A stretch of 64,000 nucleotides of DNA from Candidatus Sumerlaeota bacterium. GTDB taxonomy: Bacteria; Sumerlaeota; Sumerlaeia; MWCT01; JAUWMI01. The notes beneath the pieces are model-generated. The model had not been told where the DNA came from, made no database searches, and saw only the letters and a program-made list of their open reading frames with translations. The stretch spans positions 1-64,000 of the forward strand of contig JAUWMI010000018.1 of NCBI GenBank assembly GCA_030613245.1, given 5' to 3'. Positions 4,536-44,191 of the stretch are shown one piece after another. The position numbers and the translations under genes were made by a program. Numbering within the stretch: the first letter of the stretch is position 1; every line of letters starts with the position of its first letter.

Positions 4536-7500
4536 CTAGGGTGCTATCGGAGGCGAAAGTGTCTCAATAGTTGCGCGATCTAGAATCAAGCTTCCAGTTG
4601 CCTCATCATCGGGTGAGAAGTTGAGCATGTCGAAAGAGACGACGAGTCCCTCGCCAACACAAGTTGCTGGCGGCAAGAAGTACATGCGGTCGTATATTGT
4701 GTTTGCGATGCTAGGAGAATTCGCGCCGTCGCCGATGCTTGCGATGCCGAAGGTGTGCGAGGCTTGAAAATTCCCAGCGTTGAACCGCAGCCGCATTTCC
4801 GGAACCAGCGCCGGGTTGGTCACGTCGGTACGCACTTCAAATGTACCTCGATACAGTTTGTTCACCTCAATCGTTATATCTGCCGGATGGCTTCCCCAGA
4901 AGCCAAACGTATTCGTATTGGTTGTTGAGCGCAGCTCAAGCGCACTGGAAGAATGAATATACTGCGGTGAAGTGAACACTATAGGTGCGCCACCCGTTGT
5001 CCAACCATCCTGGCTCGACTCAAAGGTGTAATCCTGAACGACTGTCGCAGGGGAGAGCGAACTCAGAGCAAAACGATCAACGGTAACGCTATCCAGGGCG
5101 AGTTCTGCCTGCGCCGCATCGTCGGGATTGAAGTTGAGAAGATCGAACGCCAGCATAGCGGCGGTATCATTCGCAGGCGGCACAAAGTAGAGGTCGTAGT
5201 CCGTGCCCGCCACGTCGGGAGACGCACCGCCATCACCTGCGCTTTCGATCGAAAGCACATCATACTGCTGGAGGTTCAAGGCATTTGCGCGGAGTCGTAT
5301 CTGGGGAACGACTGGTTGATCCGTTATATCGGTCGAGACCGTGAACCGGGCGCGATAGAGGTAGTCCGAGTCAGCGGCAATCGCATCCTGCGCGCTCTGC
5401 CAGTAGCCAAACGTATTCGTATTCGTTGATGAGGTCATCTTTAGGTAGTCAGCTTCCCAGAGGAAATCAGGAACCGTATAGATAATGGGCGCGCCACCGG
5501 AGGTCCAATCCTCCGTATCTGGTATAAAGTCGAAGACAATCTGCCAGGGCGTGGGTGAGGGGGTTGGTGTGGGAGTTGGAGTGGGCGTGGGTGTAGGACT
5601 AGAAGTCGGCGTAGGCGATGGAGTTGGGCTTGGCGTTGGTGTCGGCGTGGGCGTCGCCGTTGGTGTCGCGGTTGGCGTGGGCGTTGGGGTTGGAGGCGCT
5701 GCAGTACGGAAATCAGCCTCATTCCAGCCATTCCACGGCATGGTCAGCCAGCGCGTGTACTTCTGGTAAGGGGTGGTTGCAGGGTGGTATCGCAGGCGCA
5801 CTCGCCAGTGGTACGGGGTGTTTTGTGTTAGGGCGATGACCAGTTGGTTGATTTCCATCCCTGCTGTACCAGTATCGATCCACGACGCACTCAGTCCTGT
5901 GCTAAGGCCATCGAAGAGAGTTGTTAGACGTTTTACTTCCCACTGTAACTTAACCTTGCCTCGGCCGTAGGGAGTGCGTCCCAGTAAGGCAAGGCGGAAG
6001 GTCATTGTGCTGTCGGACTTACCCAATGGAGCGATAGGCACCGGGGTGTAGCTGCGTCGTTGGCGAGGATTGAGTGAAGGCTGGGCCCAATTGTATCCCC
6101 CATTTCCATAGTGCAAGCAAACCTGACCCTCGTTAGCCTGGCCATCAGCGTACTGATAGACTCCTACTATAACATCTGCATACCCGTCGCCGTCTACATC
6201 CCCTGCCGTGGAAACGGAGTAACCCAGGCGAGCACCTGCCTGGTCTGACTCGACAATACAGTGAGCTTCAGAACTCAGACCGGTGTTACCACCAAGGTAC
6301 ACATAAGCCCTTCCTTCGTCCACTTCGCCATTATTATAGTTATAAGCACCCACAATGACATCTGCATACCCATCACCGTTTACATCACCTGCCGTGGAGA
6401 CAGACGCACCAAAGTTAGTGTATCCTTGATTCCCTTCAGCACTCCACGATGGAGCGGGGCTCAGCCCCAGGACGCTGCTAAGGTAAACAAAGGCGGCCCC
6501 CTCTTTTATAATACCATTTTCATACTGACGAGCCCCAACGATGACGTCCGAAAGGCCGTCGCCATTCACATCTCCGGCAGTAGAAACAGAGCAGCCAAAG
6601 TAGGCCCCCGCCTGATCGGCCTCGGCGTTCCACGAAGACGTCTGGCTGAGCCCCGTGGGGCTCCCATAATAGACGAAAGCCTTGCCTTCGTCTTCTTCCC
6701 CATTGTCATACCAAAGCGCTCCAACAATAACATCAGAATAGCCATCGCGGTTCACATCGCCCGCGGTGGAGACGGAACCGCCAAATCTGCAATGCGCCTG
6801 GTTACCCTCCACACTCCAGGACGGTGTTAAGCTGAGCCCTGACGAACTACCATGGTACACAAACGCAGCACCTTCATTGGTTTGGTCATTGCTATAAAGC
6901 GACGCTCCGATAATGACATCGCCGTATCCATCACCATTCACATCTCCGGCTGTTGAGACTGAACAGCCAAAGTAGTCCGCCCCCGGCTTCGCAGTCCAAT
7001 CCGCCACGGTGCTAAGCCCCCCGGCGCTCCCGTGGTATACATAGGCCGTTTTATCGTAAAGTGCCCCGACAATAACGTCCCCGTAACCGTCGCCATTCAC
7101 ATCCCCTGCAGCGCCAACTGAGTAGCCGAATAGGGAGTATTCCCCGCTCCCTTCCGTGGTCCAATCAGGGGCTACTCGCGAAAGGCCCGCTGCGCTCCCG
7201 TAAAACGCACACGCCATACCCTTGTCTTGCTCGCCGCTGTCGTAATACGGATTTCCGATGATCACGTCCGCATATCCGTCGCCATTTACATCCCCGGCTG
7301 TACCCACACAATGCCCAAACTTTGCATCGGCCTGGTTTGACTCATAGTACCAACTGGGATTGCGACTAAGATCGTCCACCCCGCCATGGTATACGAACGC
7401 TGCCCCTGCATTTGTTCCACCATTATCGTAGTAGCGAGCCCCCACGATGATGTCCGAGTAGCCATCTCCATTCACATCTCCGGCCGTCGCCACGGAATAG

Positions 7501-9449
7501 CCAAACTCGGCGTCAGCCTGGTACTGAGGGCAGTGTTTGAGCGCATAGCGATACGTCTTGAGCCCGCTCGAGCCTCCCATGAACACATAGACCGCACCTC
7601 CGTTGGAGTAATGCGGCACTCCAACGGCAACGTCTGCATATCCGTCATGGTCCACATCACCCACAGTAGCCACGGAATAGCCCAGGTGGATGCCATCATA
7701 ATTGCTGTGGTAGGTAAAATCGGGCGTTGTTTCGAGTCCTGTGGCACTCCCATAATATGCGAAGACGACACCTTCGTCCGTATTATCAATCTCGTAATTT
7801 GGTGCTCCGACAACGACATCCGAATAGCCGTCACCATTCACATCTCCCGCAGTAGAAACGGAAAAGCCTAAATGCGCACCCTCCTGATTCGACTCGACTC
7901 CCCATGACGTATAGCCATACAACCCTGTGGCAGAGCCGAGGTATAAAAACGCTCCTCCCTCTCCTGTTGGGCCAAACGCTTCATGATCTGGGGCACCGAC
8001 GATTACGTCAGAATACCCGTCGCCGTTAACATCTCCAGCAGTGCAAACAGACCAGCCCAAATGCGCATTAGGCCTATTGCGTTCGCCAATCCACGAATAT
8101 GACGCGCTTAACCCTGTGGAACTCCCATAATACCCAAACACTGCTCCGTCGTCCGTCTGACCGGTGTCATAATAAGGCGCCCCAACGACTACGTCAGAAT
8201 ATCCATCGCCATTTACGTCCCCAGCCGTTGAAACAGAATAGCCGAATTTGGCACCTGTCTGATTGGATTCCGCGCTCCGGTTTGCAGTCAGACTCAGCCC
8301 ACCGGAAGAACCGTGATACACGAACGCCCCGCCCTCAGATGATTGTCCATTATAGTATTGAGGGCATCCGACAATGACGTCCGAATAGCCATCACCATTC
8401 ACATCGCCAGCCGTAGAAACTGACCAGCCGAAAAGGGAATTACCCAGATTTGACTCCGCAGTCCAGCTGGCCACCGTACTGAGTCCCGCAGCACCCCCCA
8501 TGTATACAAAAGCGCGCCCCTCATTAGTCTGTCCGTTGTCGTAAAACGGTGCGCCAATGATAACGTCCATATACCCATCACCATCCACATCGCCAGCAGT
8601 GGCTACAGAATAGCCAGCATTGCAAAACTGCTGAGCCCCTGTCATTGTCCAGCTAGGGTCGGTGGAAATACCGCTGCTCTGCACAACGCCGGTAAAGGTC
8701 GGGTCTACAACTAATGGGTAACTCGCACCATCGTCATTAATTGTCAGACGTAATTGGTCATCCAAAAAGCAGAGTTTGGCAGGCAATTCGCGACCACGAA
8801 CATCTACAACCCGAAGTCCGCCGTAGAGCAGCACGACATCTCTATCGTGCAGAAATTCCGCGCTCGCACGATCATCGAGTACCTGTGTGCGAAGATCGCC
8901 GCTAATTCGGGAAACGAGAATCAGTAACCCGCTACCTTCCGGCTTCTCGTCTATAACGAAGCTCTGCTTAATTCCAACGTCGCTATTCTCGTACGTCATT
9001 GTCAGAAGCGCATACCGATATTCGATGCAATTCCTTTCGACGGCCAACGTCGGTTCCCCGAACGACTTTATTGCTCCCTCGCGACCAAACCCCGTCAGCG
9101 TGTAGTTCCACACCCAATAAGGCGCAACATTCGTGCGCCTTACTACGCTCATCCCTTCCGGACAAAAATACGCTCTGAGGTTCTGGGCCCGGTTTGCCAT
9201 GTGATAGCCCGCTTTCCCACCAGGGATGACGCACTGCTCCTGCCAGGTTACTTCATATTGCATCTGGCGGATGTGTTGCTGTGCTTGCTGCCACCAGTCT
9301 GACTGCTTCAATGTGTCAACGTCAACTGACGTGGTCTGGTGACCATAAGTTGAAGGACAGAACAGCAGAGCCGGCGCAATGATCAATAAGAAGGCCAATA
9401 CCTGGCCAGTCCTGGAACGAATCGCACGCCAGACAGTACAACTTATCAT
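4536..9449 (-). CDS. Giant secreted FG-GAP (integrin-alpha-like) repeat protein with two C-terminal jelly-roll-like modules
   Basis: Predicted 1637-residue extracellular protein. In order: signal peptide (hydrophobic AFLLIIAPALLFC, residues ~19-31); a ~240-residue N-terminal region ending in YPLVVDP, like domains that precede FG-GAP/SBBP repeats; 14 FG-GAP repeats of ~61 residues, each with a calcium-binding loop such as GDVNGDGYSDVIVGA; a ~110-residue fibronectin-III-like domain; a Pro-Thr linker of about 45 residues; and two tandem ~155-residue modules sharing STNTNTFG and related to each other, resembling carbohydrate-binding jelly rolls. FG-GAP repeats form seven-bladed propellers, so 14 would fit two propellers. 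ATG at 9449 is chosen because AGGAGG lies 7 nt before it and the signal peptide follows. The ligand is unknown; adhesion or polysaccharide binding is inference. Confidence 0.85.
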   Translation of the reverse strand: MISCTVWRAIRSRTGQVLAFLLIIAPALLFCPSTYGHQTTSVDVDTLKQSDWWQQAQQHIRQMQYEVTWQEQCVIPGGKAGYHMANRAQNLRAYFCPEGMSVVRRTNVAPYWVWNYTLTGFGREGAIKSFGEPTLAVERNCIEYRYALLTMTYENSDVGIKQSFVIDEKPEGSGLLILVSRISGDLRTQVLDDRASAEFLHDRDVVLLYGGLRVVDVRGRELPAKLCFLDDQLRLTINDDGASYPLVVDPTFTGVVQSSGISTDPSWTMTGAQQFCNAGYSVATAGDVDGDGYMDVIIGAPFYDNGQTNEGRAFVYMGGAAGLSTVASWTAESNLGNSLFGWSVSTAGDVNGDGYSDVIVGCPQYYNGQSSEGGAFVYHGSSGGLSLTANRSAESNQTGAKFGYSVSTAGDVNGDGYSDVVVGAPYYDTGQTDDGAVFGYYGSSTGLSASYSWIGERNRPNAHLGWSVCTAGDVNGDGYSDVIVGAPDHEAFGPTGEGGAFLYLGSATGLYGYTSWGVESNQEGAHLGFSVSTAGDVNGDGYSDVVVGAPNYEIDNTDEGVVFAYYGSATGLETTPDFTYHSNYDGIHLGYSVATVGDVDHDGYADVAVGVPHYSNGGAVYVFMGGSSGLKTYRYALKHCPQYQADAEFGYSVATAGDVNGDGYSDIIVGARYYDNGGTNAGAAFVYHGGVDDLSRNPSWYYESNQADAKFGHCVGTAGDVNGDGYADVIIGNPYYDSGEQDKGMACAFYGSAAGLSRVAPDWTTEGSGEYSLFGYSVGAAGDVNGDGYGDVIVGALYDKTAYVYHGSAGGLSTVADWTAKPGADYFGCSVSTAGDVNGDGYGDVIIGASLYSNDQTNEGAAFVYHGSSSGLSLTPSWSVEGNQAHCRFGGSVSTAGDVNRDGYSDVIVGALWYDNGEEDEGKAFVYYGSPTGLSQTSSWNAEADQAGAYFGCSVSTAGDVNGDGLSDVIVGARQYENGIIKEGAAFVYLSSVLGLSPAPSWSAEGNQGYTNFGASVSTAGDVNGDGYADVIVGAYNYNNGEVDEGRAYVYLGGNTGLSSEAHCIVESDQAGARLGYSVSTAGDVDGDGYADVIVGVYQYADGQANEGQVCLHYGNGGYNWAQPSLNPRQRRSYTPVPIAPLGKSDSTMTFRLALLGRTPYGRGKVKLQWEVKRLTTLFDGLSTGLSASWIDTGTAGMEINQLVIALTQNTPYHWRVRLRYHPATTPYQKYTRWLTMPWNGWNEADFRTAAPPTPTPTPTATPTATPTPTPTPSPTPSPTPTSSPTPTPTPTPTPTPSPTPWQIVFDFIPDTEDWTSGGAPIIYTVPDFLWEADYLKMTSSTNTNTFGYWQSAQDAIAADSDYLYRARFTVSTDITDQPVVPQIRLRANALNLQQYDVLSIESAGDGGASPDVAGTDYDLYFVPPANDTAAMLAFDLLNFNPDDAAQAELALDSVTVDRFALSSLSPATVVQDYTFESSQDGWTTGGAPIVFTSPQYIHSSSALELRSTTNTNTFGFWGSHPADITIEVNKLYRGTFEVRTDVTNPALVPEMRLRFNAGNFQASHTFGIASIGDGANSPSIANTIYDRMYFLPPATCVGEGLVVSFDMLNFSPDDEATGSLILDRATIETLSPPIAP
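4566..5530 (-). repeat. Tandem duplication of C-terminal binding-like module
   Basis: Two copies of a ~155-residue module (5050-5530 and 4566-5045) within the FG-GAP protein. Both begin with a W-T-x-GGAPI stretch, followed by STNTNTFG, a conserved R-ar-F-V-x-TD stretch, a central SxGDG and a final LNFxPDD. The copies have diverged at the DNA level, so the duplication is not recent. Confidence 0.75.
5548..5700 (-). repeat. Low-complexity Pro-Thr-Pro linker coding repeat
   Basis: G- and T-rich 6-nt periodic DNA on the + strand encodes alternating Pro-Thr, Pro-Ser and Ala-Thr pairs in the minus-strand FG-GAP protein. Such linkers separate the propeller part from the C-terminal modules and are common in extracellular multi-domain proteins. 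Confidence 0.85.
6110..8640 (-). repeat. 14 tandem FG-GAP repeats (~183 bp each)
   Basis: The calcium-loop motif GDVNGDGYSD or a close variant occurs 14 times at a spacing near 61 codons. Variants include GDVDHDGYAD in repeat 6, GDVNRDGYSD in repeat 11 and GDVNGDGLSD in repeat 12; repeats 6 and 9 are shortened in the YDNGQTNEG stretch. Repeats 10-13 look most alike. The array spans codons for roughly residues 270-1110. Confidence 0.9.
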
Positions 9450-9564
9450 AATTATGCCTCCTCTGGGACTTGTGCCAGAAAACATAAAGAACAAAACCCG
9501 GCAACACTGCCCATTCCTGCGCGATTGGCCGGACAAATAAAAAAGCCGGGAGCCGACAACTCTC

Positions 9565-26900: not shown

Positions 26901-28178
26901 ATGAACAATACCGTAGCACTGGTTCTGGCAGGAGGGAAAATTGACGGATATGGCGTGCTCACGCTGACACGCGCCAAAGCCGCCTTGCCATTTGGAGGCC
27001 TCTACAGAATCATTGACTTTGCTCTGAGCAATCTGAGCAATTCAAGCATTGAACGTATCGGGATTATCACACAATATCTGCCCTCATCGCTGATTGAGCA
27101 TGTCGGAGCTGGCTATGCATGGGATCTCCATGGCTATGGCCGTACCGTAAAGATCATGCCGCCTTTCATGGGCGTGGGAAAGACGGAATGGTACAAGGGC
27201 ACTGCCGACGCGGTGCTACATAACCTGAATTTTGTATACGACCTGAACCCCGACAATGTGCTCATCCTGTCGGGCGAACATGTGTACCAGATGAATTATC
27301 AAGACGTGATCCGGTTTCACCAGGAGCATGACGCCGATGCGACGCTGGTAGGGGTGCATCTGCCAGATGAACGCCTTTCGTTGCGGTTTGGCTATATGAA
27401 AGCTGATGCTGACCACCGCGTAACGTTTTTTAAAGAGAAACCTGCTGAATTCTTGTCAAATTTTGTCTCCGCGGGTATCTGTGTTTTCAAGAAGACGGCC
27501 CTGATCGAGAAGCTGCTGGAGGATTCAAATCGTCCAACCACACACAACCTGGCAGCTGACATCATTCAACCGATGGTAGCTGAGGGAAGAGTCTATGCTT
27601 ATACCTTTACCGGCTTCTGGGACTACCTGGAACATATTGGCGCATACTACGAGGCGAATATGTTAATGTGCCAGAGCGATTCCAAGCTTCAGCCGGGGCA
27701 GTGGGGGATTCTAACAAATCCCGAGGATCGGAATCTCGGGTTTCGCCCTTCCAGCCACATAACGTCATCGGCGACGGTCAGCGAGAGTGCTATTTCACCG
27801 GGTTGCTCTATTGCAGGAACAGTTATACGCTCGGTATTGTCGCCGGGAGTACAGGTTGAAAAGAGTGCTGTTGTTGAAGATTCGATTATCATGCACGATA
27901 CTACGGTGAATCGCGGGGCGCACCTTTGCCGGGTCATCTCTGACAAGGATGCCATCTTTGAACCAGACTGCGTAGTGGGAGGAAAAGAAGGATACCCCGA
28001 AGGCAATTCTGAGCTGCCCCAAAACCGTGCAGGACTCGTGGTAATCGGCAAAGGTGCAGTGATTGCAAGAAAAACGAAAATCGAGCCCGGATGCCAGGTC
28101 TATCCCCATGTTGATCTGCGCCAGAGCAGCCGACGCCATTTCCCCAGTGGCCATAATATTAAACTGACATCAACTTAA
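26901..28178 (+). CDS. ADP-glucose pyrophosphorylase paralogue with altered catalytic residues
   Basis: Clearly homologous to GlgC: RAKAALPFGGLYRIIDFALSN, GTADAVLHNL, FFKEKPAEF and a C-terminal left-handed helix region (SATVSESAISPGCSI, GVQVEKSAVVEDSII). Key catalytic positions differ. The phosphate loop normally LAGGxGxRL is LAGGKIDGYGVLT, lacking the Arg. RAKPA is RAKAA. The metal-binding Asp in SGDHxYxMDY is Glu (SGEHVYQMNY). In E. coli GlgC that Asp (142) is essential. I infer a non-catalytic or regulatory subunit pairing with the canonical GlgC encoded 70 nt downstream, like the plant large subunit or GlgD. AGGGGA precedes the ATG. Alternatively it uses another sugar nucleotide. Confidence 0.88.
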   Translation: MNNTVALVLAGGKIDGYGVLTLTRAKAALPFGGLYRIIDFALSNLSNSSIERIGIITQYLPSSLIEHVGAGYAWDLHGYGRTVKIMPPFMGVGKTEWYKGTADAVLHNLNFVYDLNPDNVLILSGEHVYQMNYQDVIRFHQEHDADATLVGVHLPDERLSLRFGYMKADADHRVTFFKEKPAEFLSNFVSAGICVFKKTALIEKLLEDSNRPTTHNLAADIIQPMVAEGRVYAYTFTGFWDYLEHIGAYYEANMLMCQSDSKLQPGQWGILTNPEDRNLGFRPSSHITSSATVSESAISPGCSIAGTVIRSVLSPGVQVEKSAVVEDSIIMHDTTVNRGAHLCRVISDKDAIFEPDCVVGGKEGYPEGNSELPQNRAGLVVIGKGAVIARKTKIEPGCQVYPHVDLRQSSRRHFPSGHNIKLTST

Positions 28179-28248: not shown

Positions 28249-29532
28249 ATGCCAAACGTGGTAGCGATGATACTATCAGGGGGAGCCGGAAGCCGACTGT
28301 CAATTCTCGCGCAGCGGCGGGCAAAACCTGCAGTTCCATTTGGAGGCATCTACAGGATCATTGATTTTACAATCAGCAATGTCGCCTATTCTGCCATTCC
28401 CTACGTTGGAGTTCTAACACAGTATAAACCCTACTCGCTGATGGATCACATCGGTACAGGGGAGGCGTGGGGATTCATCGGTCGGCGGCGGTGTGCCAGA
28501 ATCCTTCCTCCCTACACGGGCGAAGAAGACTCTGACTGGTACGCAGGCACTGCTGATGCGATCTACCAGAACCTTTCGTTTCTCGCCCGATTTCGCGCGG
28601 ACATTGTTCTGGTTCTGTCTGGCGATCATGTCTACCACATGGATTACAACGATATGATCCGATTTCACCTCAAGAACCGCGCCGATCTGACAATCGCCAT
28701 GCAGGAAGTGCGCTCTTCAGAGAGTGTTCGGTTCGGAATGGCGGACGTTAATGAGCAAGGTCGGATTTGCCGCTTCTACGAGAAGCCCAAAGAATGCAAA
28801 ACGAACATCGCCTCACTAGGGATTTACGTGTTCACACGCGATATCCTTGTTAAGCGGCTTCGCGAAGACGCAGCCTCATCCTCGACCCATGATTTTGGCA
28901 AGAACATTATTCCTAAAATGATTGCGGAAGACCGCGTCTATTGCTATCTGTTCAATGACTACTGGCGTGACGTCGGCACGATTCAGGCCTATCGCGATTC
29001 CAATATGGAGATTCTTGATCCCGGTTCAGGAATTAATCTGGGCAAGTGGGGCGTGCGGACAAATAGCGCATTGCGCGAGCCGCACGAGCGAGGCCCTGCG
29101 AAAATCCTGTCCCGGGCTGCAGTGTCGAAGTCCATCGTGTCCACCGGCTGCATTATTGAAGGTGAAGTCACTCATAGCATCCTTTCTCCGGGCGTCAGGA
29201 TTCGCAAAGGTGCCAGGGTTCAGGACTCGATTCTTATGGACAACGTTGAAGTTGGTGAGGGTGCATTTCTTCAAAACACTATTCTCGACAAAAACGTCCG
29301 TGTCGAGGCCGGATGTGAAATCGGCACGGGCGAGGGGCGTAGCAATGCCGAATTCCCATCCTTGCTGAGCAGTGGTATTACCCTCATTGGAAAAGGCGTT
29401 ATAATTCCCGCGCAGACGCGCATTGGCAAGAATTGCCTGTTCTATCCAGAGTTGACTCCAGCCGATTTCCCAAGCCGCGAGATTCCTTCGGGAACAACCC
29501 TGTATAAACAGAGCATAGCGCAGAGTCTGTAG
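28249..29532 (+). CDS. glgC: Glucose-1-phosphate adenylyltransferase
   Basis: Makes ADP-glucose, the committed step of bacterial glycogen synthesis. All active-site blocks are canonical: MILSGGAGSRL, RRAKPAVPFGG, GTADAIYQNL, LSGDHVYHMDY (catalytic Asp), FYEKPKE and DVGTIQAYRDSNM. A C-terminal beta-helix (VSKSIVSTGCII, GVRIRKGARVQDSIL) carries the tetramer contacts. It lies 70 nt after a degenerate paralogue and 32 nt before radA. GGAGG is 7 nt before the ATG. No glgA, glgB or glgP is in the window. Confidence 0.94.
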   Translation: MPNVVAMILSGGAGSRLSILAQRRAKPAVPFGGIYRIIDFTISNVAYSAIPYVGVLTQYKPYSLMDHIGTGEAWGFIGRRRCARILPPYTGEEDSDWYAGTADAIYQNLSFLARFRADIVLVLSGDHVYHMDYNDMIRFHLKNRADLTIAMQEVRSSESVRFGMADVNEQGRICRFYEKPKECKTNIASLGIYVFTRDILVKRLREDAASSSTHDFGKNIIPKMIAEDRVYCYLFNDYWRDVGTIQAYRDSNMEILDPGSGINLGKWGVRTNSALREPHERGPAKILSRAAVSKSIVSTGCIIEGEVTHSILSPGVRIRKGARVQDSILMDNVEVGEGAFLQNTILDKNVRVEAGCEIGTGEGRSNAEFPSLLSSGITLIGKGVIIPAQTRIGKNCLFYPELTPADFPSREIPSGTTLYKQSIAQSL

Positions 29533-38750: not shown

Positions 38751-41700
38751 CTAGTGGATTTCCATCTGAAAATCTCTTATTACAGGATGCCCCACTGGTG
38801 ACAATAGCAATTCCGCCTCCCATTGTACCAGCTGACCCTTAGGGAGCAGCTCCGCACTTTCCCTTTTTTCGTTTAACGGCAATTCCTCCCACGGTTGCCA
38901 GGAAACGCTCTTCTGCTTCATGGTGCCAAACCGGACACGGTAGCGCACCGCGGTTCCCAGTGGTCTGGTTTCGTCCGCTCGAAAAGCCAAGCCAGCACTC
39001 CGCTTCTTTATACGCCCCAGGTCAACGATTGGCGAGGTGAACTTCCCTTTGACTGGCACAAACTCAAAATGGTTGACAACCGTCCAGTAGTTGTCCTCCA
39101 CATCGTCAATCGTTACGTCAAAGTACCGGTCATGCACGTCATAGCGTCCCAAATAGTATTTCACTGTCTTCCACGGCAACTTCTCATCAGTGTAATTATG
39201 GAGCTGAAAATCTTTCTCATCCTCAATCTTAAGCCGTATTTTGGACGCCCGATACCCTTTGTAATTCCGATTGGTCTGCACGTAAATGTACACATCATAC
39301 ACACTGGTCTGATCCTCTTCGGGTAGTGGGATGCTAAGCGCGATCGGTTCCGCATTCTCGTAGGGAGAGGATTCCAACCACATGGTCGCGAAATACCACC
39401 TGTTGTCGTGCAGCGGATCTGCACCTGTGGCGGTCGGAACCTCATAGCGAGGTGCGTACTTGGGATCCACATCAATTAGGTGTCCGGAGGCATCCCGCAA
39501 GCTGGTAGGATAAATTTCCATGGCGGGATTGACCTGCACCATCTCTTTGCGACCCAAGAGGAAGAGAGTTCTGCAGCTATACTGCTCCTTACCCACCGGA
39601 TCAAGATCGTGCAAACCGCAGATGTAGTCAAATACGATGTCAATAGAATTGTCCCCGTAGTTCAGCTCGTCTATCTCTTTCTCCGAGTTTGCCGAAACGG
39701 AGAAAACGTTCTTGTATCTGTCAATCTTCCAAAGAACTGATCGGGTAATCTCCTCGTGCGCCTTTAAGAGTTTAATCTCAATGGGAGATTCGTATGGACG
39801 CTTGTGTTCATTGGGCGCCTGCTCCTCCATGATAACCTCAAAAGGGCCGAGATCGAGATCGCTGGTATTACGAATCGTATAGGAAATAGTAACCTCATCC
39901 CCGCGGCGAATGGTTTTGCTGGACGTCTGAACGTCCTGCAAGGTGATTTCAATGTTTCCCTGCTTTTTAATGTGCACCTTTCTCGAAGCCAGGTTGTTTG
40001 TGTAGTCGGCCTCTTTTATGGTCTTTGTGCTATTGGCAATCACATAGACCGTGTAATCTCCCGGCAGCCCAAACCGATCCCAGCGAATGGTCACCTCAGT
40101 TTCCTCGCCTGGCCCCAGGCGGTCAATATACACATTCGGCGCATGGTAAAAGCGTGAGACAACCTTGGCGCGATCCCATGGAACATCCTCAAATGCCTCG
40201 ACGAGGAAGTCCTCTGCAGCTCGGCTCCCAATGTTCCGCACTGTCGCCTTGATAAAAATTGTTTCCCCGTTTAAAAATTGATCGCTATGGAACTTGATTG
40301 ATTCGGGATCAACCGTTAGATCTGGCATCGCTAGCACGGCTACAAACGTCGGTACCTCCAGAATGGTAATATAATCATCTGTGCTCGCCTCATAGGCCTT
40401 AACAAAAAAGTTCAGGCTAAACCGCCCTTGAGGAAAGGGAATAATTGTTTGAAAGCGCAACTCCTGGCTGCTCTGCGGCTCGAGTCTCTTGATCTCCTCG
40501 ATTGCGCCCAGAGTGGTTCCATCGCCACGCTGTAGCTCACAATACACATTCTCCGCTGCCCGGTCGCCCAGATTGTAGAGCCGAACCACAAATTCCGGGA
40601 GCGAATCCGTGTAGAAAGGGTTTGGCAGCGGCGTGATTTCATCGGAATTCACCACCAGAACGGCCTGCTGTCTGGGTGCCCTAACTGGTAGAAACAAATG
40701 CTTGGTCACACCATTGCCCTCTTTAGCCTGTTTGCCTTGCCTGGCCTCAATAATGAGGTGGTGAACGCCTTGTGTGGGATTCCAACCTAGCGAAAATGTC
40801 TGCTTTTCTTTCGGATCGAGTGGAAATGTCTTTGCAAGAATCGGCTCTGTAAATTCAGGATTAGTGACGCGCAGCGAAACCTCGGGCAACGTAACTTTGC
40901 TATCATTCGTTACCGTAAACTCAAATGTCACTCTTTTATTTTGCTGAAAAAACGGTTCCGGAGATGGACTATAAGCCACGTCAAGCGCAAGCTTCGGCTT
41001 GACCACTTCAAAATCTGCCGTGGCCCGGGCATCGTATTCCTCCGGAAAGTTATAGGCATAGGCGAGTAGCGTATAGCGCCCTTCGGGAAATCCCGCAGAA
41101 AACTCATACTCGTATGACATGAGCCCATTAAATACACGCACCTTATCGGCCAGCACTGTGGCATCTTCTTCCGTGCCTCGTCGGATCATCACCTTCGCCT
41201 GACCCCAGAACGGAGTTTTCCACGCGCCCGTTATGTGGAGGGTTGTACTTGTTTCCTGGTTGACAACCGCAGGAGCAACTGCAAGCGAGAACGACTTTCT
41301 GGGTGAAGAAAGAGAGAGCCAGGGATCTCCGAGCAGCAAGAACTGGTCAATCACGTACTTGTTTCCTTTCTCAAGTGCGTAGCGCAATTTGGAATAGAGA
41401 GTCAACTCGCCCATTCCGCGCAACCCTAAGTCGAAAAAGCCCTCGTACAGCGTACGGATCAAAATCGCGTGGTCTGAAGGGCTAGCTCCTGTGGTTGGGC
41501 CATAAACGCCAATTGCCGCTCCCTCTTTGTGTTTAAGAAAACGCTCTGCCAGACTATATCGGATCGCATCCACAGGATAATCCAGCCACGCGGTGTCACA
41601 CGTCGAACAGGTAAGAAACATCGGAGCCGTGCGGTTATGCAGCCCTTCGATCTCCTTGAAGTGGAACAGGCGCTCGGCTGTCCAGATATTTGGACCGCCG

Positions 41701-44117
41701 TGGCCAAAGTAGTTCATGATCACCACGCCATCGTTAATCTGCTGAATCAGCGCCTCGGTTGCAGCTCGGCTTCGTTTGCGTTGCCAGAGGCGGTAGTAAT
41801 TACTGTAAGGGAAATTCTGCTGAAACAGCCGTATCGTCTCAGCAGAAATCGGAAACGCATCCTTAATCACATTGTTCACAATACGTGCAAATTCGGGCTC
41901 ATCGTCCGTCACGAAGAGATGCTGATTACCCCATTCTCCCACATTGCAACTTCGCTCATAGCTCAGGGTTTTTTCAATAATCCCCGTGAGCTCCTCGGCA
42001 GTATTTACCGAAAACCGACCAAGGAGGAGATCGGGCAGATCATCATCTCCGCTCACAGTGGCATATTGATTATCAGCCCGGACGCTTACAGTAGTATCGC
42101 CGAATCCCATAACGGGTACTAAGTCCTCCTGTGCATCTGCCGGTAATTCACTCAGCCGACCTACGTAGTCGCTACTTTCGCCTACCAGCAGAACATACGT
42201 CAGGCGTGGTGAAGCCCATAGGTAGTAGACATACCTGATGAACTCTCTTATCGCTTGGGCATCTTTATTCCCATAGTTGAACGCATTGTACATCTCGTCC
42301 ACGGTCGCTGTATATACGCGCAACCCCTGCTGGCGTCGTGCCTCAACAAATGGCTCGAGTGCCTCCAGAAATCGTGAATGTGTGATAATCAAATAGTCGG
42401 CCCGGTTACTCTGCTGGCAGATCTCAATAGGCGCGATACGCTGGATCGCAACTGGCAGCTTTGCTGACTCAGAACCAACCACCTCGTAACGCGACTCGCC
42501 TGTGATCTGATCAATCCACGTAATGCCTGCCTTTCCATCATGGTAACGGGAAGAGGGCTGATAGAGAATGGGGTTCTGAGAATCGGTAACATTAAAAACC
42601 AACGTCTCGCGGTGGCTAAATCCGGGAAGAAAAAGACGATACGCACTATCGCTCACCGGAGCTTTAACCGTCACTGAGAGCGCGTTCTTCTCGCTTTCCA
42701 GCTTGCGCACGTAGGTGACAGTGAATCCTTTAAAGACAATCTTGGGAGCCAGATCCTCATTCTCTGTGTCTGGCACATATATGGCCAAGCGGTTCACACC
42801 ATTTCGCAGATAGCGCACTGGCACTTTCTTCTCGTACTTGTAATTCTGCAGCGGCCTCCATTCGATTGAATCAAGAAGCGCGCCATTTAGATAGATGGCA
42901 CAATAGTTCGTCTTGAGTTGCTCTTTCCCTGCAAAATAACATGTGAGGTCAAATGTCTTTTCATCAAACGAGACGGCTTCTATCTCAAAAGGAAACTCTT
43001 TAAAATGCTCAACCGTAATTTCTTCCCAATACCACCTGCCGAGATAAAAGGGTTGAATGAGACGGTGATAGTAAAACTGCCGTTTGAATTGTTCAACAGT
43101 TGCCGTCCCTGTGGTAATCACCTCGGGGACCGTCGGCTGGATTTTGGAGGTCGATATTGGCTGAAGCCGCATTGGCGCAGGAGCGTTATCACTTGTTTCC
43201 ATTAATAACCAGTAGGCGTCCTGCGGCCGTTTGGTCTGATCAAACGGTAGGGCGTAAAAATAAATTCGATCATTGTAGGAAAACGTGTCGGTGAGTTCCG
43301 CCTCAACGACAATCGAGATCTCTTTTCCATCATGATAGAGTTTCAGACGTTCCGGGTTCAAAATGTCTGGCTCGATGCCTGCCTGCCGAAGCTCATAATA
43401 ACTAAGCTCGTATACGCCGGGTTGCTCGACCACAATCTTCAGCACCGGCCCGGATGTCAATGCGTCATTAACTTTGTCCGCCCACGCCCTGGCCACTGAC
43501 AATGCGGATAAACCTGTTGCGCTGTGGTCTGCAAAGCGTTCAAAGCAGTCGGCATTCAACACGACATGAGAAAGCATTTTCTCGGTCAGGAGATCGCGCT
43601 CAGCTCCTTCCGCTTCCTCTGGCAAATATGGAAACTTGAGTTTGAAGGTTAAACTTGTGAAGACGAGCAACGCAGGTTTCTTCCCCGCTGACCTTGATCG
43701 AATGATTGGCACGAGCTCCAGGCGAGCCAATTGCATATTGCGAAACTTGCCTACGTATTTATAGCGAATAAAATCACTCTGACTTGGCAACGGAAAGTCA
43801 GGCTGTGCCGTGCGATTGGTGAACGAACCTATCCGCTTGCTATCCTGATATACCTCAACCTCGTAGTCACCCAGCACGATCTTAGGCAGCTTCTCCGTCG
43901 GAACAGCAAGATAGTACCGGTCCACTATGGGTGTATAGAGGTAGGCTTCGTGGGCCTTGTTGTGATTCTTCAGGGAAATCTGCAGGCTGGCTGGCCCGAC
44001 CATTTCAGATGAAACCGCGACCCTGTTGAGGTACTGGTCAGCGCGCTCCTTAATCAAGGCCAGGGAACTCATTGCAAAAGACACACAAAAAACAGTCAGA
44101 CATACTTTGCGAAACAT
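38751..44117 (-). CDS. Secreted C25 (gingipain-like) cysteine protease with CARDB-type modules
   Basis: 1788 residues. A signal peptide (MFRKVCLTVFCVSFAMSSLA) is followed by a ~570-residue propeptide/beta-rich region and a peptidase C25 domain. YLIITHSRFLEALEPFVEAR marks its start, FGHGGPN (~residue 805) supplies His, and FLTCSTCDTAW (~835) supplies Cys. After it come beta-sandwich modules, at least two of them CARDB-like (e.g. ~1264-1382, VRNIGSRAAEDFLVEAFEDV, EADYTNNLASRKVHI), and a ~300-residue end region. ATG at 44117 has AGGAGA 6 nt before; an in-frame start at 44177 would spoil the signal peptide. No type IX C-terminal sorting domain is apparent. Expected role: extracellular proteolysis; substrate unknown. 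Confidence 0.87.
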   Translation of the reverse strand: MFRKVCLTVFCVSFAMSSLALIKERADQYLNRVAVSSEMVGPASLQISLKNHNKAHEAYLYTPIVDRYYLAVPTEKLPKIVLGDYEVEVYQDSKRIGSFTNRTAQPDFPLPSQSDFIRYKYVGKFRNMQLARLELVPIIRSRSAGKKPALLVFTSLTFKLKFPYLPEEAEGAERDLLTEKMLSHVVLNADCFERFADHSATGLSALSVARAWADKVNDALTSGPVLKIVVEQPGVYELSYYELRQAGIEPDILNPERLKLYHDGKEISIVVEAELTDTFSYNDRIYFYALPFDQTKRPQDAYWLLMETSDNAPAPMRLQPISTSKIQPTVPEVITTGTATVEQFKRQFYYHRLIQPFYLGRWYWEEITVEHFKEFPFEIEAVSFDEKTFDLTCYFAGKEQLKTNYCAIYLNGALLDSIEWRPLQNYKYEKKVPVRYLRNGVNRLAIYVPDTENEDLAPKIVFKGFTVTYVRKLESEKNALSVTVKAPVSDSAYRLFLPGFSHRETLVFNVTDSQNPILYQPSSRYHDGKAGITWIDQITGESRYEVVGSESAKLPVAIQRIAPIEICQQSNRADYLIITHSRFLEALEPFVEARRQQGLRVYTATVDEMYNAFNYGNKDAQAIREFIRYVYYLWASPRLTYVLLVGESSDYVGRLSELPADAQEDLVPVMGFGDTTVSVRADNQYATVSGDDDLPDLLLGRFSVNTAEELTGIIEKTLSYERSCNVGEWGNQHLFVTDDEPEFARIVNNVIKDAFPISAETIRLFQQNFPYSNYYRLWQRKRSRAATEALIQQINDGVVIMNYFGHGGPNIWTAERLFHFKEIEGLHNRTAPMFLTCSTCDTAWLDYPVDAIRYSLAERFLKHKEGAAIGVYGPTTGASPSDHAILIRTLYEGFFDLGLRGMGELTLYSKLRYALEKGNKYVIDQFLLLGDPWLSLSSPRKSFSLAVAPAVVNQETSTTLHITGAWKTPFWGQAKVMIRRGTEEDATVLADKVRVFNGLMSYEYEFSAGFPEGRYTLLAYAYNFPEEYDARATADFEVVKPKLALDVAYSPSPEPFFQQNKRVTFEFTVTNDSKVTLPEVSLRVTNPEFTEPILAKTFPLDPKEKQTFSLGWNPTQGVHHLIIEARQGKQAKEGNGVTKHLFLPVRAPRQQAVLVVNSDEITPLPNPFYTDSLPEFVVRLYNLGDRAAENVYCELQRGDGTTLGAIEEIKRLEPQSSQELRFQTIIPFPQGRFSLNFFVKAYEASTDDYITILEVPTFVAVLAMPDLTVDPESIKFHSDQFLNGETIFIKATVRNIGSRAAEDFLVEAFEDVPWDRAKVVSRFYHAPNVYIDRLGPGEETEVTIRWDRFGLPGDYTVYVIANSTKTIKEADYTNNLASRKVHIKKQGNIEITLQDVQTSSKTIRRGDEVTISYTIRNTSDLDLGPFEVIMEEQAPNEHKRPYESPIEIKLLKAHEEITRSVLWKIDRYKNVFSVSANSEKEIDELNYGDNSIDIVFDYICGLHDLDPVGKEQYSCRTLFLLGRKEMVQVNPAMEIYPTSLRDASGHLIDVDPKYAPRYEVPTATGADPLHDNRWYFATMWLESSPYENAEPIALSIPLPEEDQTSVYDVYIYVQTNRNYKGYRASKIRLKIEDEKDFQLHNYTDEKLPWKTVKYYLGRYDVHDRYFDVTIDDVEDNYWTVVNHFEFVPVKGKFTSPIVDLGRIKKRSAGLAFRADETRPLGTAVRYRVRFGTMKQKSVSWQPWEELPLNEKRESAELLPKGQLVQWEAELLLSPVGHPVIRDFQMEIH

Positions 44118-44191
44118 CTTTCTCTCCTGGTTGGTGGCTGAGGACAAGAGATCTTCTTCTAATTTGCGCCTCTCCAATAGACATTACGAGA

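What the first reader, a model, noticed from the sequence alone, without database searches (positions are those of the whole stretch)
26901..28178. Degenerate GlgC paralogue next to a canonical GlgC
Seen: the first of two tandem ADP-glucose pyrophosphorylases lacks the GxGxRL Arg, has RAKAA for RAKPA and Glu for the catalytic Asp in SGDH; the second has all consensus residues. Known: the Asp (E. coli 142) is needed for catalysis, and hetero-oligomeric enzymes with a non-catalytic subunit exist in plants and Firmicutes (GlgC/GlgD). Inference: this is an independent catalytic/regulatory subunit pair.
Basis: partly seen in the sequence, partly recalled or inferred. Interest (0 to 1): 0.6.

Follow-up and report, generated by a model that had tools for sequence, protein, structure and literature searches.

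The report
Catalytically dead partner of glycogen enzyme
Next to a normal copy of the enzyme that makes ADP-glucose for glycogen, this bacterium carries a second copy whose catalytic residues are gone but which evolution has preserved across its phylum and in other bacterial families, so it is probably a regulatory subunit of the working copy and not a second enzyme.

Summary
P1 (26901-28178) is 41% identical to the canonical GlgC, P2 (28249-29532). P1 lacks Arg32 (E. coli numbering) and the Pro of RAKPA and has Glu for Asp142. All 19 P1 orthologues compared from the same phylum (Sumerlaeota/BRC1) lack Arg32, Pro43 and Asp276, and 17 have Glu142. Lys42, Lys195, Arg40, Arg52, Gln74 and Trp113 are kept. 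P1 is under purifying selection and co-occurs with P2, including in six genomes where the two genes are apart. Nine further partners from eight families outside the phylum share the Asp276-to-Tyr change and group with P1. AU tests reject grouping P1 with GlgD and reject a phylum-specific duplication from P2. The best reading is an ancient non-catalytic subunit lineage that assembles with canonical GlgC, working like GlgD or plant large subunits but not belonging to either. Assembly, effectors and activity are untested. Other, separate degenerate GlgC lineages also turned up. Novelty: a new variant of a known kind.

The parts
26901..28178 (+). P1: degenerate GlgC paralogue, proposed non-catalytic (regulatory) subunit, 425 aa
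   Evidence: GlgC models 304-337 bits (below curated cut-offs), GlgD model 200.7 bits (below cut-off 236.6)
26931..26951 (+). P1 G-rich loop GGKIDGY (residues 11-17): Arg32 equivalent is Gly16, Leu33 equivalent is Tyr17
   Evidence: Arg lost in 19/19 orthologues
26970..26984 (+). P1 RAKAA (residues 24-28): Arg40 and Lys42 kept, Pro43 replaced by Ala
27276..27278 (+). P1 Glu126 in place of catalytic Asp142
   Evidence: Glu in 17/19 orthologues
27435..27443 (+). P1 EKP (residues 179-181): Lys195 equivalent kept
   Evidence: kept in 18/19 orthologues
27618..27626 (+).
   Evidence: Tyr in 17/19 orthologues and in 9/9 related partners outside the phylum
28249..29532 (+). P2: canonical GlgC, proposed catalytic subunit, 427 aa, with Arg16, Lys26, Asp126, Lys179, Asp241
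   Evidence: the only other GlgC-type gene found in this genome
28179..28248 (+). 70-base gap between P1 and P2; no promoter or terminator signal above chance

Best explanation
P1 is a non-catalytic subunit of ADP-glucose pyrophosphorylase that co-assembles with the catalytic P2, most likely as a mixed tetramer like GlgC/GlgD or plant S/L, and modulates its activity. Shown by sequence: P1 has lost both aspartates that hold the catalytic Mg2+ and the Arg of the nucleotide loop, so it should be unable to make ADP-glucose. It keeps the whole two-domain chain, the N-domain arginines of the allosteric phosphate site (Arg40, Arg52), the relay residues Gln74 and Trp113, and Lys195 of the Glc-1P pocket. 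Inferred: P1 occupies half of the subunit positions, contributes allosteric clefts and perhaps binds Glc-1P or an effector without turnover, and so tunes P2, which supplies ADP-glucose to the GlgA found elsewhere in the genome. The lineage probably arose once by an old duplication, is marked by Asp276-to-Tyr, and is shared by several bacterial families.
For: Loss of Arg32, Pro43 and Asp276 in 19/19 and Asp142-to-Glu in 17/19 orthologues, with Lys42 19/19 and Lys195 18/19 kept. Arg40, Arg52, Gln74 and Trp113 kept in 19/19. Asp142 and Asp276 chelate Mg2+ and Arg32 is critical for catalysis (PMC5474683). Arg41/Arg53 of potato SS, which align with P1 Arg24/Arg36, bind the allosteric sulfate (PMC6218581). 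Co-occurrence of P1-type and P2-type in 40 genomes: 18 both, 3 and 2 alone, 17 neither (p 3e-6; by family 9/1/0/5, p 0.002), including six genomes where the genes are apart. In tandem pairs the partner precedes the catalytic gene on the same strand. dN/dS 0.06-0.10 for P1-type against 0.04-0.07 for P2-type. Nine partners in eight families outside the phylum group with it, one clade not rejected (p 0.195), all with Tyr276, a column left out of the tree. GlgA is present at C15.
Against: No protein data. No complex could be modelled, and the single-chain AlphaFold model was poor (pLDDT 46.5 from 4 sequences). One 94% complete genome (G029) has P1-type without P2-type, and two have P2-type without P1-type. 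Two orthologues keep Asp142. Grouping with the outside partners has only moderate support (SH-aLRT 84 in the quick tree; 88/67 and similar in the careful tree).
Confidence: 0.74

Rival explanations
1. P1 is a stand-alone pseudoenzyme: it forms its own homotetramer that binds a sugar phosphate or nucleotide and acts as a sensor or on another partner, not inside the P2 tetramer.
For: Substrate-site Lys195 and Lys42 are kept; in six genomes the two genes are not adjacent; one nearly complete genome has P1-type but no P2-type (G029).
Against: Tight co-occurrence with P2-type, tandem order in 11 genomes of the phylum and in other families, and precedents of mixed tetramers in the same fold.
Confidence: 0.13
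2. P1 is an active nucleotidyltransferase with another substrate or metal arrangement, Glu126 replacing Asp142.
For: Asp-to-Glu is conservative; Lys42 and Lys195 are kept; low dN/dS.
Against: Asp276 is Tyr in 17/19 and lost in 19/19, Arg32 lost in 19/19, DFG motif lost. Asp142 and Asp276 together hold the metal (PMC5474683). I know of no active member of the superfamily with both changed (own knowledge).
Confidence: 0.07
3. P1 is a GlgD protein (Firmicutes-type regulatory subunit) that diverged or was transferred.
For: Same kind of degeneration; GlgD model matches at 200.7 bits.
Against: Scores lower than with GlgC models (304-337) and under the GlgD cut-off, as does canonical P2 (210.7); a true GlgD scores 406 with GlgD and 158-179 with GlgC models. 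AU rejects a P1+GlgD clade (p 0.001, 0.002). Gene order is opposite to GlgC-GlgD. GlgD loses Lys42, Lys195, Gln74 and Trp113, which P1 keeps.
Confidence: 0.02
4. P1 is a decaying duplicate of P2 (pseudogene in progress) or a MAG artefact.
For: Active-site residues are lost.
Against: Intact 425-aa frame; the same losses in 19 genomes; dN/dS 0.06-0.10; duplication older than the phylum.
Confidence: 0.01

Closest known systems
GlgC/GlgD ADP-glucose pyrophosphorylase of Firmicutes (TIGR02092 GlgD)
   Same: Tandem pair of a canonical GlgC and a paralogue without catalytic residues; GlgD lacks activity and modulates GlgC (PMC9093745).
   Different: P1 is not in the GlgD clade (AU rejected), falls below the GlgD model cut-off, comes before and not after glgC, and keeps Lys42, Lys195, Gln74 and Trp113, which GlgD loses.
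Plant large (L) and small (S) subunits of ADP-glucose pyrophosphorylase
   Same: Duplicate subunits, one degenerate at equivalents of Arg32/Lys42 in some plants (own knowledge of the potato L subunit); mixed tetramer.
   Different: Plant subunits group with cyanobacterial-type GlgC in a starred clade far from P1; the plant L chain in the tree (9xuk_B) keeps Arg, Asp142 and Asp276.
Canonical long GlgC (P2 type; NF003670/TIGR02091)
   Same: P1 is nearest to these in sequence (41% to P2) and by profile.
   Different: P1 lacks Arg32, Pro43, Asp142 and Asp276 and scores far below the curated cut-offs of these models.
Homotetrameric GlgC of E. coli and A. tumefaciens
   Same: Same two domains; allosteric Arg40/Arg52 and relay Gln74/Trp113 kept.
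   Different: Catalytic residues lost in P1; two genes where these have one.

Membership tests
Catalytic GlgC (EC 2.7.7.27) | Arg of GxGxRL (E. coli Arg32) | tested here: not met
   Gly16 in P1; lost in 19/19 orthologues
Catalytic GlgC (EC 2.7.7.27) | Metal-binding Asp142 | tested here: not met
   Glu126; Glu in 17/19
Catalytic GlgC (EC 2.7.7.27) | Metal-binding Asp276 | tested here: not met
   Tyr242; lost in 19/19
Catalytic GlgC (EC 2.7.7.27) | Glc-1P Lys195 | tested here: met
   Lys180; 18/19
Catalytic GlgC (EC 2.7.7.27) | Score over the curated cut-off of TIGR02091 or NF003670 | tested here: not met
   304.1 against 424.9 and 337.3 against 470; P2 is also slightly below (402.4, 432.7), so the cut-off alone is not decisive
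GlgD | Score over TIGR02092 cut-off and above GlgC models | tested here: not met
   200.7 against 236.6; true GlgD 406.5
GlgD | Placement in the GlgD clade | tested here: not met
   AU p 0.001 and 0.00191 against
GlgD | No catalytic activity, modulates GlgC in a mixed tetramer | not testable with these tools
   Loss of residues shown; assembly and kinetics need the bench
Plant L subunit | Placement with plant S/L and cyanobacterial GlgC | tested here: not met
   Plant chains in a separate starred clade
Hetero-oligomeric ADP-Glc PPase (by mechanism) | Co-occurrence with a catalytic partner | tested here: met
   18 both, 3 and 2 alone, 17 neither, p 3e-6; near-obligate, with exceptions
Hetero-oligomeric ADP-Glc PPase (by mechanism) | Physical mixed tetramer with altered kinetics | not testable with these tools
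   No complex modelling available; single-chain model poor

The most novel reading that the evidence does not exclude
P1 belongs to an unrecognised, widespread lineage of non-catalytic ADP-glucose pyrophosphorylase subunits, apart from GlgD and plant L. It arose once, is marked by Asp276-to-Tyr with Lys195 kept, and is found in Sumerlaeota and at least eight families of other phyla. It makes glycogen control in many uncultured bacteria hetero-oligomeric and could sense Glc-1P directly.
Probability: 0.5. Interest if true: 0.62.

Novelty: new variant of a known kind. Interest (0 to 1): 0.5.

Why it matters
ADP-glucose pyrophosphorylase is the control point of bacterial glycogen. Mixed tetramers with a dead subunit are described for Firmicutes (GlgD) and plants; reviews treat other bacterial enzymes mostly as homotetramers. 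If P1 is such a subunit, the trick evolved or persisted in more lineages than thought. Genes annotated as plain glucose-1-phosphate adenylyltransferase in many genomes would then be inactive subunits. The Pro of RAKP plus Asp276 gives a simple diagnostic for re-annotation and for choosing which protein to assay.

Tried and rejected
The AU tests on the full 126-row tree did not finish, so a 60-row set was used. A grand test of all degenerate copies as one clade did not finish. GlgD, plant L, pseudogene and phylum-specific duplication were considered and rejected as above. Promoter and terminator scan: nothing above shuffles. GlgB of the GH13 TIGR01515 type was not found in this genome, so the branching step was not identified. 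dN/dS for one pair was saturated. Plasmid records gave no named organism carrying a P1-type partner. Literature searches found no description of a non-GlgD, non-plant inactive GlgC subunit; the library is open-access only, so this is weak evidence of absence.

Full report
What is there. Two ORFs lie in tandem on the + strand: P1 26901-28178 (425 aa) and P2 28249-29532 (427 aa), 70 bp apart; radA follows 32 bp after P2 and an amidohydrolase-like ORF ends 165 bp before P1. P1 and P2 are 41% identical end to end. Both match NTP_transferase and the left-handed beta-helix region of GlgC. In this genome no other gene of GlgC type was found: the remaining NTP_transferase matches align only weakly with P1. 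A glycogen synthase GlgA is present at C15 (594.6 bits).

The observation. Aligned to E. coli GlgC the numbers are Arg32 to Gly16, Pro43 to Ala27 and Asp142 to Glu126. Two more losses were not listed: Asp276 to Tyr242 in the WRDVGT motif, and DFG 239-241 to NLA. In the E. coli enzyme Asp142 and Asp276 chelate Mg2+ and Arg32 is critical for catalysis (PMC5474683). Asp-to-Glu alone would be a weak argument; losing Asp276 as well is a strong one. P2 has every consensus residue.

The phylum. Related genomes came from the genome search; one is a named BRC1 (Sumerlaeota) MAG, L009. P1-type copies occur in 21 of 40 genomes of the phylum and P2-type in 20: 18 both, 3 P1-type only, 2 P2-type only, 17 neither (Fisher p 3e-6; counted by family 9, 1, 0, 5, p 0.002). 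Relatedness makes these p-values optimistic, and the family count is the safer one. The genes are tandem, partner first, same strand, in 11 genomes, and unlinked in six (G005, G007, G016, G020, G021, G031; for some of these the two genes are on different contigs of a draft), where both are still kept. The 19 longest P1-type sequences all lack Arg32, Pro43 and Asp276; 17 have Glu at 142; all keep Lys42 and 18 keep Lys195. They also keep Arg40, Arg52, Gln74 and Trp113 without exception. Arg41/Arg53 of the potato small subunit, equivalent to Arg40/Arg52, bind the sulfate of the allosteric site (PMC6218581), and W113 is tied to activation in E. coli (PMC5474683). dN/dS between near relatives is 0.06-0.10 for P1-type and 0.04-0.07 for P2-type. 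So P1 is neither decaying nor an artefact.

Beyond the phylum. A search of 386 genomes across the domain found further pairs. Nine degenerate partners in eight families outside the phylum (G083, G115, G136, G137, G181, G228, G274, G275, G318) fall with P1 and P2 types in a clade supported 100/100. All nine have Tyr for Asp276, although the motif columns were removed before the tree was built. Holding P1-type and these nine together is not rejected (p 0.195). A duplication inside the phylum is rejected (p 0.01). So one ancient origin is the simplest reading, but the support for the inner branches is moderate and I do not claim it as proven.

Not GlgD, not plant L. P1 scores 200.7 with the GlgD model, under its cut-off of 236.6 and far under its own GlgC scores; a real GlgD scores 406.5. 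AU tests reject P1-type with GlgD (p 0.001) and P1-type plus the nine partners with GlgD (p 0.0019). GlgD lies after glgC in all nine pairs read here; P1 lies before. Plant S and L chains sit with cyanobacterial-type GlgC.

Mechanism. Shown: inability of P1 to hold the catalytic metal is expected from sequence; conservation and co-occurrence tie P1 to P2; allosteric-site and relay residues are kept. Inferred: a mixed tetramer with P2, and modulation by P1. The kept Lys195 and Lys42 allow the further guess that P1 binds Glc-1P without turnover. Precedents are the GlgC/GlgD enzymes, where GlgD is inactive but changes kinetics (PMC9093745), and heterotetramers noted in bacteria generally (PMC11046441).

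Limits. No complex was modelled. The literature library is open-access only. Other degenerate partners (L101, L103-L105, L107, L109, L113, L118; L110, L114, L115; L111, L112, L116) lie elsewhere in the tree, so loss of function in one GlgC copy probably happened several times.

Noticed in passing
L107, L109, L110, L114, L115, L101, L103-L105, L113, L118 (genomes outside the phylum): Further tandem or nearby GlgC pairs whose second copy lacks the Pro of RAKP and often Arg32 but keeps Asp276; they do not group with P1 in the tree and look like separate degenerate lineages.
   Followed up: partly
L111, L112, L116: Short (about 370 aa) degenerate GlgC partners (RASAA, SGDH, WRN/WSN) that precede the catalytic gene and join the GlgD clade at 99; GlgD-like proteins with more catalytic residues left than Firmicutes GlgD.
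   Followed up: partly
L072:1941-3062: GlgD of Agathobacter rectalis keeps a GxxxR-like loop, SGD and EKP, far less degenerate than Lactobacillus GlgD; an intermediate worth assaying.
   Followed up: no
L054:2980-4257: Single GlgC on a plasmid of Candidatus Chlorohelix has Leu in place of Lys42 (SALPSLPFAG) with all other catalytic residues kept.
   Followed up: no
L075 (Pseudomonas fluorescens plasmid pZL222): Carries a Firmicutes-like glgBCDAP cluster; transfer or mislabelled/contaminated record.
   Followed up: no
L016 (G029): P1-type gene in a 94% complete genome where no P2-type was found, only a cyanobacterial-type GlgC; either an assembly gap or a change of partner.
   Followed up: no
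own genome G000: GlgA is present but no GH13 branching enzyme of the TIGR01515 type was found; branching may use another family (GH57 not searched).
   Followed up: no
window 38751-44177 (-) and 4536-9536 (-): Two very long ORFs (1808 and 1666 aa) not examined.
   Followed up: no
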